From assembly GCA_026391975.1 (NCBI GenBank), contig JAPLDB010000081.1, positions 937 to 48,610 on the forward strand: a stretch of 47,674 nucleotides of DNA, read 5' to 3'. Of the stretch, positions 44,092 to 47,674 are shown in pieces. A program made the position numbers and the translations under genes. The notes beneath the pieces are model-generated. The model searched no databases, was not told where the DNA came from, and saw only the letters and a program-made list of their open reading frames with translations. Within the stretch, counting starts at the first letter, position 1. The number at the start of each line of letters is the position of its first letter. This DNA comes from Bacteroidota bacterium (GTDB lineage Bacteria > Bacteroidota > Bacteroidia > AKYH767-A > 2013-40CM-41-45).

Positions 44092-46572
44092 TTATTTTTT
44101 AACAGCCTTCTTTGTTTTAACAGCTTTCTTTTTCACGGCAGTTTTCTTTGCCGATGCAGCTTTCTTCAATGGAGGTTCCTCCTCTGTAACCTTCTTTTTG
44201 CCGGCAGATTTTTTCACCGGTGCTGCCGCCTTTTGCTTGAAACCGCCCTTTTTCCCGCCCCAGGATTTCTTACCGGTATCGGGTGTGTTTGCTGCAATTT
44301 CATTGATCTCTGCAAGGGTTATGGTAGTACCGTCTTTGTCTTTTGGAATGCGAAGATTACGTCCATGGAAATTGATAAATGGTCCCCATCTTCCTTTGAG
44401 CACCTGAACCTCTTTGTCCTCTTCAAATGATTGTATCAGGCGCTCTGCATTGGCCCTCTTTTTATCAATGATCAGTTCCACTGCCCTGTCATAGGTTATT
44501 GTATACGGATCGTCTTCCTTTTTCAGAGAGGCAAACAAACTCCCGAAACGAACATATGGTCCAAATCGTCCGATGGAAACAACAACATCATCCCCTTCAT
44601 ATTGTCCGATGTTACGCGGAAGTTTGAACAGATCAATCGCTTCCTCGAGGGTAATATTTTCTATTCGCTGGTTGTTACGCAACTTGGCATAACGCGCCTT
44701 CGCACCCTCGCCGAGTTTTTCAATTTCATCCGTGGTTCCGATTTGCGCCATTGGTCCAAACCGGCCAACACGCACAAGCAATGTCAATCCGCTTGCCGGA
44801 TCTTTGCCGAGAATACGTTCGCCGGAAACGCGTTCCGAATTTTCCGTTGTATGCTCCACTGTTTTATGAAATGGCACATAAAATTCAGCAAGCATTTTCT
44901 GCCATTTCAAATCGCCGTTGGCGATATCGTCAAATTCTTTTTCAACGAAAGCAGTAAAATTAAAGTCAAGAATTTCCTTAAAGTTTGCCACGAGGAAATC
45001 ATTCACCAGCATGCCGATATCAGTAGGGAATAATTTATTTTTATCAGCTCCTGTTGTCTCCGTTTTCTTTTCTGCTTTGATCTGATTGTCACGCAGTGTG
45101 ATCACATCGTATTCGCGTTCTCTTCCCATGCGCTCTTCCTTAACAACATATCCGCGTTTTTGAACGGTAGATATTGTTGGCGCATATGTTGATGGTCTGC
45201 CGATTCCGAGCTCCTCAAGTTTCTTTACCAGCGAAGCCTCCGTGTATCGTGCCGGCGGATAAGTGAACCGCTGCATGGCTACGGATTCAACAAGAGCCAG
45301 CTTCTCGCCAATAGTTACTTCCGGCATCAGTCCTTCCTGCGTTTCATCACCTTCTTCATCTGTTCCTTCCATATAAAGGCGAAGGAATCCATCAAACTTG
45401 ATCACTTCTCCCGTTCCAATAAAGTTCAAAGCTGATTTATCCGACGCAACCGTGATCACTGTTTTTTCCAGAATCGCTTCACTCATCTGTGATGCCAATG
45501 CGCGCTTGCGGATGAGGTCATATAACCGTTGGTTGCGTGTGTCTTCATCAACTACTTCCGTATTAAAATCAGTCGGACGAATGGCTTCGTGGGCTTCCTG
45601 TGCCGATGCCTGCTTGGTTTTATACTGTCGGGTCTCAGAATATCTTTCCCCGTAATTGCTAAGGACAACCTGGCGTGCATTTGCAAGGGCATCCTGAGAA
45701 AGATTTACAGAGTCCGTTCTCATGTAAGTGATCTTTCCGCTCTCATATAATTTTTGGGCAATCACCATTGTTTGCGCAACGGAATACCCGAGTTTTCTGC
45801 TGGCCTCCTGTTGCAATGTTGATGTCGTGAAAGGCGCAGCCGGTGAGCGTTTTCCGGGCTTTACTTCCAGGTTCCTAACAGAAAAATTTGCACCGATACA
45901 ATCGTTCAGAAATTTTTCCGCCTCTTCTCTCGTTGTAAATTTTTTCGAAAGTTCTGTTTTAAACGTTTTACCGTTAACAGAGAATACCGCCGTTACCCTG
46001 TAATAAGTAGTAATGCCAAAAGATGTTACTTCTCTTTCGCGATCCACGATCAACCGAACAGCGACACTTTGTACGCGTCCTGCCGAAAGTGATGGACGAA
46101 CTTTTTTCCACAGTACCGGGCTCAGTTCAAAACCCACCAAACGATCCAGTACCCTGCGTGCTTGTTGAGCATCAACTAAATTACGGTCGATCTTTCGCGG
46201 GTTATCAATGGCATTTAATATTGCCTTCTTTGTTATTTCATGAAACACAATGCGACGTGTATTCTTTTCATCGAGCTCCAGTGCCTCCAGCAAATGCCAT
46301 GAAATGGCCTCCCCTTCGCGGTCCTCGTCCGTTGCAAGCCACACAATGTCTGCTTTCTTCGATAGTTTCTTCAGGTCATTGATCACATGCTGTTTGTCGG
46401 GACTGATCTCATACACCGGTTCGAAATTCTTTTTGACATTGATACCCATGCCGCTCTTCACCAGGTCACGCACGTGTCCGTAGCTCGACTTCACCGTGAA
46501 ATCTTTTCCGAGGTATCCCTCAATGGTTTTCGCCTTTGCAGGAGACTCAACGATGACTAGGTTTTTTGACAT
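44092..46572 (-). CDS. topA: DNA topoisomerase I (type IA) with Lys/Ala-rich tail
   Basis: NLVIVESPAKAKTIEGYLG; LATDEDREGEAISWHL; SAGRVQSVAVRLIVDRE; ITYMRTDSVNLS; lysine-rich C-terminus. Confidence 0.98.
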   Translation of the reverse strand: MSKNLVIVESPAKAKTIEGYLGKDFTVKSSYGHVRDLVKSGMGINVKKNFEPVYEISPDKQHVINDLKKLSKKADIVWLATDEDREGEAISWHLLEALELDEKNTRRIVFHEITKKAILNAIDNPRKIDRNLVDAQQARRVLDRLVGFELSPVLWKKVRPSLSAGRVQSVAVRLIVDREREVTSFGITTYYRVTAVFSVNGKTFKTELSKKFTTREEAEKFLNDCIGANFSVRNLEVKPGKRSPAAPFTTSTLQQEASRKLGYSVAQTMVIAQKLYESGKITYMRTDSVNLSQDALANARQVVLSNYGERYSETRQYKTKQASAQEAHEAIRPTDFNTEVVDEDTRNQRLYDLIRKRALASQMSEAILEKTVITVASDKSALNFIGTGEVIKFDGFLRLYMEGTDEEGDETQEGLMPEVTIGEKLALVESVAMQRFTYPPARYTEASLVKKLEELGIGRPSTYAPTISTVQKRGYVVKEERMGREREYDVITLRDNQIKAEKKTETTGADKNKLFPTDIGMLVNDFLVANFKEILDFNFTAFVEKEFDDIANGDLKWQKMLAEFYVPFHKTVEHTTENSERVSGERILGKDPASGLTLLVRVGRFGPMAQIGTTDEIEKLGEGAKARYAKLRNNQRIENITLEEAIDLFKLPRNIGQYEGDDVVVSIGRFGPYVRFGSLFASLKKEDDPYTITYDRAVELIIDKKRANAERLIQSFEEDKEVQVLKGRWGPFINFHGRNLRIPKDKDGTTITLAEINEIAANTPDTGKKSWGGKKGGFKQKAAAPVKKSAGKKKVTEEEPPLKKAASAKKTAVKKKAVKTKKAVKK

Positions 46573-46662: not shown

Positions 46663-46837
46663 TTTCAGGATTTTTCAGCGCGCAAATAAAAGCATTTTAT
46701 TTTTTTACCTGCAAGAGAAATTTTTTTTCAAATATTTAAGAGTGAAAAAATTCGATTCTTTTAGAATTTTGCCCTGCTGTTCGCTGCAAGTCCGCGCCTC
46801 CGCAAATGCCTGCGCATGCGGGCTTTCCGCTGCCATC

Positions 46838-46889
46838 AGGGCTACTTTAGAATGAATATTTTTTCACTGAATATTTTTTCAGCAGCCCT
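46838..46889. repeat. Hairpin AGGGCT...AGCCCT enclosing a 14-nt direct repeat TGAATATTTTTTCA x2
   Basis: TGAATATTTTTTCA at 46853-46866 and 46868-46881. Confidence 0.6.
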
Positions 46890-46915
46890 ACCAATAGAAT
46901 TCAGGAAACATTCCA

Positions 46916-47174
46916 GTGCAACGAGGCCCCAAAGCCATGTAGTCATTGCGAGATTTCAACCTGTTGCACAGAAAAAAAATGGTGATGACATTGCCAAGAA
47001 AAGCGCAGGCAACTACATAACCCGCCTTCAGCCTTGGTGCCCAGCAGAGCCCGTTTGCGAGATTGGGACTAATGTTCTATGAAAAAAATGTTAGTGGCAT
47101 CCTGATTCAAACGGGATGACCCTGTTTATAAGCTTGCTTAATTTCCAAAGAACATTTGAGTTGCCTTGCGCTTT
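46916..47174 (+). ncRNA. Candidate IS110 bridge RNA region (boundaries approximate)
   Basis: Structured non-coding stretch 5' of the IS110 transposase: GTGCAAC/GTTGCAC stem (46916-46922/46963-46969), CCCGTTTG/CAAACGGG stem with large internal loop (47050-47057/47108-47115), long-range stem AAAGCGCAGGCAACT/AGTTGCCTTGCGCTTT (47000-47014/47159-47174). Confidence 0.5.
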
Positions 47175-47201
47175 GTGTTTAACTATAAAATTATTAAACG
47201 T

Positions 47202-47674
47202 ATGGGTAAAGAAACAAAAAAAGGGAATGTCGTCAATCAAAAGCCAACCGCAAAAGGAAAACAGTTTGAATTAAAATTAGGAGTTATTCATCCTCATTCG
47301 GCTGGAATGGATATTGGCGCCAAAAGCATTTTTGTGTCTTATCAAGGCACAGATGGTGTTCAGGTTTTAAAAGAAGTACAGGCGTTTACTGCGGACTTGC
47401 GAATACTCTCAAGCGAACTGCTACTTGCAGGGGTCACGCACCTGGCAATGGAAGCAACTGGAGTCTACTGGATGTCTGTATTTGAGATCTTGACCGATGC
47501 GGGTATTCATGTATCGGTGGTCAATCCGCGTCACTACAAAAATGTCGAGGCGGAAAAAACAGATGTCAAAGATTGCCAATGGCTGCACCAATTGCATGCA
47601 CACGGGTTGATGCGCAACTCTTTTATTGCACAGGAACTAAGTAGGGAGTTACGTTCCTATATTCATGAACGAAA
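47202..47674 (+). CDS. IS110 family transposase, N-terminal DEDD domain (truncated by window end)
   Basis: Own translation: MGKETKKGNVVNQ...LGVIHPHSAGMDIGAKSIFVSYQG...THLAMEATGVYWMSVFEILTDAGIHVSVVNPRHYKNVEAEKTDVKDCQWLHQLHAHGLMRNSFI; acidic residues in GMDIG, MEATGVYW, KTDVKDCQWL. No stop before window end. Confidence 0.93.
   Translation, partial: MGKETKKGNVVNQKPTAKGKQFELKLGVIHPHSAGMDIGAKSIFVSYQGTDGVQVLKEVQAFTADLRILSSELLLAGVTHLAMEATGVYWMSVFEILTDAGIHVSVVNPRHYKNVEAEKTDVKDCQWLHQLHAHGLMRNSFIAQELSRELRSYIHER

What the first reader, a model, noticed from the sequence alone, without database searches (positions are those of the whole stretch)
46916..47201. Candidate bridge RNA 5' of a previously untracked IS110 transposase
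Seen: upstream of the transposase ATG (47202) there is a dense set of paired segments: GTGCAAC...GTTGCAC (loop 46923-46962); CCCGTTTG-cgagattggg-ACTAA...TTAGT-ggcatcctgatt-CAAACGGG, i.e. a stem, a large two-sided internal loop, then an inner stem; and AAAGCGCA-GGCAACT pairing with AGTTGCCTTGCGCTTT across 47000-47174 with one bulge. Known: IS110-group elements carry a bridge RNA in the non-coding end 5' of the transposase, with internal loops that base-pair target and donor DNA. Inference: 47058-47067 and 47096-47107 are candidate guide strands, with the GTGCAAC hairpin a second loop; which one is target or donor cannot be told without the element's ends.
Basis: partly seen in the sequence, partly recalled or inferred. 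Interest (0 to 1): 0.7.

Follow-up and report, generated by a model that had tools for sequence, protein, structure and literature searches.

The report
IS110 transposon's guide-RNA end
This is the left end of an RNA-guided jumping gene (an IS110-group insertion sequence) that encodes a bridge RNA whose target guide matches the repeat it jumped into; it is a new but ordinary member of a recently discovered and already described kind.

Summary
The ORF at 47202 is an IS110-group DEDD transposase, cut by the contig end (the window end). The element's left end is placed at about 46953, where the genome's dispersed repeat GTAGTCATTGCGAG|GNACGAAGCAATC is broken. A 10-mer at that break (TTGCGAGATT, 46946-46955) recurs in the noncoding end at 47055-47064, inside the motif CCCG-[guide]-TGGG, as a left target guide should. 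The nearest relative (59% protein identity) and more than 15 further IS110 elements show the same guide-to-left-flank match, and the downstream motif at 47120-47133 matches the right end in relatives. The outer stem 47000-47014/47159-47174 is supported by six two-sided compensatory changes out of 11 pairs. Corrections: the GTGCAAC/GTTGCAC hairpin straddles the element's left end, so it is not a bRNA loop; the stem CCCGTTTG/CAAACGGG has about zero probability and is not conserved. The right end and right flank are not in the assembly, so donor guides and right target guide are inferred only. A possible oddity, weakly supported: in this clade the right target guide may lie 5' of the left one, opposite to IS621.

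The parts
46939..46952 (+). Left genomic flank: interrupted copy of a dispersed REP-like repeat (GTAGTCATTGCGAG|...), the left half of the target
   Evidence: Other copies in the genome read GTCATTGCGAGG-N-ACGAAGCAATC or close variants; here the repeat breaks after GCGAG.
46946..46955 (+). TTGCGAGATT: left target plus probable core and first bases of the element
   Evidence: 10-nt exact direct repeat of 47055-47064.
46953..47201 (+). Inferred noncoding left end (LE) of the IS110 element
   Evidence: Repeat interruption, guide match, LE length of about 250 nt comparable with relatives G010 (about 220) and L035 (about 265).
46996..47180 (+). Inferred bridge RNA (ends approximate)
   Evidence: Fold z -2.90; homologous structured region in L035, z -4.06; outer-stem covariation.
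47000..47014 (+). Outer stem, 5' arm (AAAGCGCAGGCAACT)
   Evidence: Pairs with 47159-47174; 6 of 11 aligned pairs changed on both sides in L035, all still paired.
47159..47174 (+). Outer stem, 3' arm (AGTTGCCTTGCGCTTT, one bulged T)
   Evidence: As for the 5' arm.
47025..47033 (+). Variable 9-mer CCTTCAGCC in the motif CCCG-[N9]-TTGG; candidate right target guide (weak)
   Evidence: Variable between conserved flanks in L035; in 11-12 elements complements its own right flank better than others', p about 2e-4 with core, 0.005-0.01 without.
47054..47063 (+). Left target guide (LTG) TTTGCGAGAT in CCCG-[LTG]-TGGG
   Evidence: Equals the left flank here and, at the same aligned place, in L035, G010 and distant relatives; 4 of 40320 pairings reach the observed diagonal.
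47071..47078 (+). 5' arm of donor-loop closing helix AATGTTCT (partner 47149-47156 AGAACATT)
   Evidence: p about 0.6-0.96; analogous helix CUGUUGCU/AGCAAUAG available in L035 at 1.9 kcal/mol above its MFE.
47149..47156 (+). 3' arm of donor-loop closing helix AGAACATT
   Evidence: As for the 5' arm.
47098..47118 (+). Hairpin CATCC...GGATG between the target and donor guides
   Evidence: p 0.94; L035 has a different perfect hairpin GTTCCAC-CAAAA-GTGGAAC at the same place.
47125..47132 (+). Inferred left donor guide (LDG) TTTATAAG in CCCTG-[LDG]-CTTGC
   Evidence: Homologous motif matches the element's own right end in G010, L035, L067-L069, L077, L083-L086 and others; this element's own right end is not in the assembly.
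47202..47674 (+). IS110-group DEDD transposase, first 157 residues; truncated by the contig end
   Evidence: Pfam/NCBIfam; D, E, D, D positions invariant in alignment with relatives; contig ends at window end.

Best explanation
The region is the noncoding left end of an IS110-group insertion sequence (450-residue transposase clade) in a Bacteroidota genome. It encodes a bridge RNA of roughly 180 nt. [quoted passage not shown] a second guide further 3' (TTTATAAG, 47125-47132) is predicted to pair with the element's own right end. The transposase would use both to recombine the circular element into the repeat. Shown here: transposase family, guide/left-flank match in this and many relatives, repeat interruption, structural conservation of the outer stem. 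Inferred: transcription of the RNA, donor guides, right target guide, core dinucleotide (AG most consistent) and the recombination reaction itself.
For: IS110 transposase assignment, catalytic D/E/D/D positions kept. Closest relative L035 shares the whole upstream architecture. LTG equals the left flank: own 10-mer (7 of 2000 shuffles reach it), 7-9 nt matches in 8 elements, 4 of 40320 permutations, and further matches in L082-L086, L088-L092, L094-L096, L098, L100, L101, L103, with at least nine different guide sequences. Flank is a dispersed repeat broken exactly at the guide match. Donor motif matches right ends in relatives; G010 tandem dimer gives a right-end/left-end junction ...CTTAAGAG|TATACAG... 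whose left half matches its donor motif TTTAAGAG. Outer stem: 6 compensatory pairs of 11. Same scheme as published (PMC11208160, PMC11208158, PMC11187229).
Against: Only one close relative (L035) was found in the collections searched, so covariation within the subfamily rests on two sequences. Right end and right flank are missing; the right target expected from the repeat pairs only partly with any bRNA segment. Right donor guide not identified. No Rfam family matches. No promoter recognised by the sigma-70 scan, though Bacteroidota promoters differ and the promoter is expected at the circle junction. No expression data.
Confidence: 0.93

Rival explanations
1. The structured stretch is only a transposase mRNA leader or attenuator and the guide/flank match is a coincidence or a leftover of homologous sequence.
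For: The region lies directly 5' of the transposase ATG and folds better than shuffles.
Against: The guide sits at the aligned position in relatives with different sequences that each match their own flank; the flank is host repeat, not element sequence.
Confidence: 0.03
2. One reading: target loop formed by CCCGTTTG/CAAACGGG with guides 47058-47067 and 47096-47107, and the GTGCAAC hairpin as second loop.
For: The complementary segments exist.
Against: p about 0.00-0.03 in the ensemble, not conserved in L035, GTGCAAC hairpin straddles the repeat interruption at 46952/46953.
Confidence: 0.04
3. The left end lies elsewhere (for example 46917 or about 46985) and the repeat at 46939-46952 is part of the element.
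For: The boundary is inferred, with no empty site or second copy in this genome.
Against: The repeat half occurs without the element at other places in the genome, and in the G010 tandem copy the guide match sits exactly at the left boundary.
Confidence: 0.05

Closest known systems
IS621 bridge RNA (IS110 group; PMC11208160, PMC11208158)
   Same: Noncoding RNA in the left end 5' of a DEDD transposase, about 180 nt, target guide of about 9 nt matching the left target, preceded by CCG and followed by UGG (IS621 bRNA letters recalled from memory), separate donor guide matching the right end, REP-type target.
   Different: Longer transposase clade (about 450 residues); an outer stem closes both loops; second guide of the target loop not at the IS621 position as far as could be tested; core probably not CT.
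ISEc21 seekRNA (IS110 type; PMC11187229)
   Same: Upstream noncoding region carries RNA with matches to both target strands; needed for transposition there.
   Different: ISEc21 belongs to the 345-385 residue cluster; its top-strand match lies 3' of the bottom-strand match.
IS110 elements of the 395-455 residue cluster on plasmids (loci L082-L105 here)
   Same: CCCG-[LTG]-TGG and CCCGTT-[LDG] motifs, outer stem, guide/flank matches.
   Different: Only about 34-47% protein identity to L035 or G010; most are inserted in IS3-family transposase genes, not in a REP-like repeat.
L035, uncultured Bacteroidetes MAG AlinenLipids_bin-4460
   Same: 59% identical transposase (N-terminal part) and the same bRNA architecture with conserved linkers.
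   Different: Guide is TTTCGTAG, matching its own left flank CTTCGTAG.

Membership tests
IS110-group insertion sequence | DEDD (RuvC-like) transposase with PF01548 and PF02371 | tested here: met
   PF01548 over cut-off in the window; PF02371 could only be seen in L035 because the window ORF is cut by the contig end.
IS110-group insertion sequence | Long noncoding left end with the RNA 5' of the transposase (IS1111: 3') | tested here: met
   About 250 nt between inferred end 46953 and ATG 47202; relatives G010 and L035 alike.
IS110-group insertion sequence | Short right end without long sub-terminal inverted repeats | not testable with these tools
   Right end not in the assembly; short in relatives.
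Bridge RNA | Left target guide matches the left flank | tested here: met
   TTGCGAGATT 47055-47064 = 46946-46955; permutation test 4 of 40320.
Bridge RNA | Right target guide complementary to the right flank | tested here: inconclusive
   Candidate 47025-47033; window's right flank unknown, the repeat consensus pairs only 4 in a row and 6 in all.
Bridge RNA | Left donor guide matches own right end | not testable with these tools
   Homologous motif does so in relatives; own right end missing.
Bridge RNA | Right donor guide complementary to own left end | tested here: inconclusive
   By eye, no convincing complement of the LE start ATTTCAACC in 46996-47180 (sequence); the same was not found in L035 and G010, whose membership is otherwise clear, so the expected IS621 pattern may not apply in this clade, or the core is misplaced.
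Bridge RNA | Conserved secondary structure with covariation | tested here: met
   Outer stem 6 of 11 pairs compensatory between window and L035; only two close sequences, alignment of the stem made by hand.
Bridge RNA | RNA is transcribed and bound by the transposase | not testable with these tools
   No expression data.

The most novel reading that the evidence does not exclude
In this clade of IS110 elements (about 450-residue transposases) the right target guide lies 5' of the left target guide, in a separate CCG-[N9]-TTGG module, so the two target guides are in the opposite order to IS621 and ISEc21 and in the order reported for IS1111 seekRNAs, although the RNA sits in the left end.
Probability: 0.3. 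Interest if true: 0.6.

Novelty: new member of a known kind. Interest (0 to 1): 0.32.

Why it matters
It adds a Bacteroidota member that targets a REP-like repeat and shows natural reprogramming of the guide (three related elements with three different guides, each matching its own flank), useful comparative material for bridge RNA work. If the swapped order of target guides holds, design rules taken from IS621 would not carry over to this large clade.

Tried and rejected
Rfam scan: no bridge RNA family, only weak chance hits and the unrelated Flavo-1 RNA. Second IS110 in the genome (C51): unrelated, did not help. Right half of the element in other contigs of the genome: absent. Viral contigs: no close relative, seven distant ones. 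Class, order and phylum samples of genomes: only 34-41% relatives. IS621-style placement of the right target guide 3' of the LTG: no own-flank signal, p about 0.26. Complement of the left-end start as right donor guide: not found by eye. An alignment of distant relatives for a covariance model was made but the model was not built, because the guide/flank test was more direct. Cores CT, GT, GA and AT were considered; AG alone fits the G010 left flank, junction and right flank together and the break of the repeat in the window, but is not proven, and the right flanks of L035 do not show it.

Full report
OBSERVATION. The region 46900-47201 folds better than dinucleotide shuffles (z -2.58, 0 of 100); the signal sits in 46996-47180 (z -2.90, 1 of 200), not in 46900-46995 (z -0.79).

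CONTEXT. The window is G000:C198:937-48610 and the contig ends at the window end, so the transposase is cut after 157 residues. It is IS110 family: PF01548 56.6 bits, NCBIfam NF033542 'IS110 family RNA-guided transposase' E 8.9e-24, below that model's full-length cut-off because only a third of the protein is present. The four acidic catalytic positions are invariant in the alignment with relatives. Neither a second copy nor the missing C-terminal half is in the assembly.

RELATIVES. One close relative was found, L035 (59% identity), in a genome with further partial copies giving two left and two right flanks. [quoted passage not shown]. More distant IS110 elements came from viral contigs, Bacteroidota genomes and plasmids.

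LEFT END AND TARGET GUIDE. The genome of the window holds a dispersed repeat GTAGTCATTGCGAGG-N-ACGAAGCAATC with variants. In the window this repeat stops after GCGAG (46952). Exactly there a 10-mer, TTGCGAGATT (46946-46955), repeats at 47055-47064, within CCCG-TTTGCGAGAT-TGGG. In L035 the same place reads CCCG-TTTCGTAGTT-TGGG and its left flank is CTTCGTAG; in G010 it reads CCCG-ACATCAAGTT-TGG and the left flank is CATCAAG. A matrix of eight guides against eight flanks puts the high values on the diagonal: 4 of 40320 permutations reach the observed sum, the ties being among A-rich guides (the G353 guide was picked after seeing its match). The same relation is seen in plasmid elements with other guides (ACACAAGCG, TTAGGAGCA, ATCTCAGCC, TGTAGAGCG, TTAAAAAAC). 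This is the left target guide of a bridge RNA as published (PMC11208160). The boundary at 46952/46953 means that the GTGCAAC/GTTGCAC hairpin (46916-46969) is half host, half element.

DONOR GUIDE. A second motif, CCCG-TT-[..], recurs 3' in the clade and matches each element's own right end: TTTAAGAG/CTTAAGAG in G010, TTAGGAAG/TTAGGAAG in many plasmid elements, TTGAAAGA, TTGAGAGA and so on; in L035 TTTGTAAG versus the right end CATTGTAA (end position itself inferred). In the window it reads CCCTG-TTTATAAG (47120-47132), which predicts a right end finishing near TTATAAG. This prediction cannot be tested in this assembly.

STRUCTURE. Between the window and L035 six of eleven aligned outer-stem pairs differ on both sides and all remain paired. 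The hairpin between the two guides is CATCC/GGATG here and GTTCCAC/GTGGAAC in L035. The donor-loop helix AATGTTCT/AGAACATT corresponds to CUGUUGCU/AGCAAUAG in L035, available at 1.9 kcal/mol above its minimum. The comparison rests on two sequences.

RIGHT TARGET GUIDE. In IS621 and ISEc21 it lies 3' of the left guide (PMC11208158, PMC11187229). Here no own-flank signal is seen 3' (p about 0.26), whereas the region 5' of the left guide, and within it the variable 9-mer in CCG-[N9]-TTGG, complements the element's own right flank better than others' (p about 0.0005; about 2e-4 with and 0.005-0.01 without the core bases). Examples: G010 TTTTTC against GAAAAA, L077 AGTGCTT against AAGCACT, L084 TGGCTT against AAGCCA. 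Against it: the window's module CCTTCAGCC pairs only partly with the repeat's right half; the window's right target was assumed from the repeat; the module was noticed before it was tested; a count of all matches outside the core gives no signal (p about 0.3); and elements with the same right flank can differ in this module (L084 and L096 against L092). It is therefore a lead, not a result.

VERDICT. A genuine IS110-group left end with a bridge RNA, truncated by the contig end, that inserted into a REP-like repeat. New member of a known kind.

Noticed in passing
window 46766-46847, minus strand: Flavo-1 RNA (RF01705), 44 bits against a gathering score of 42, E 6.7e-08, between the IS element and a long minus-strand ORF at 44092-46572 that reads like DNA topoisomerase I (named from its sequence, not searched).
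   Followed up: partly
L049 (G000:C196) about 513-690: A sequence that looks by eye like another Flavo-1 copy lies in the same relation to a 21-nt stretch identical to window 46929-46949, so that stretch is shared host sequence.
   Followed up: partly
G000, loci L055-L065: Dispersed REP-like repeat GTAGTCATTGCGAGG-N-ACGAAGCAATC with variants, about nine copies apart from the interrupted one.
   Followed up: partly
L045 (G010:C17) 35-2941: Head-to-tail dimer of an IS110 element, period 1563, which exposes its right-end/left-end junction.
   Followed up: yes
L004 (G000:C51) 377-1408: A second, unrelated IS110-family transposase (343 residues), followed by several near-copies of a sequence containing ACGTTTCCTGTCGGGTCTCTCC.
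   Followed up: no
L084-L101 (plasmids), L077, L081: Many relatives are inserted at the same kind of site (..TAAAAAAC|..), apparently in IS3-family transposase genes, each with guide TAAAAAAC.
   Followed up: partly
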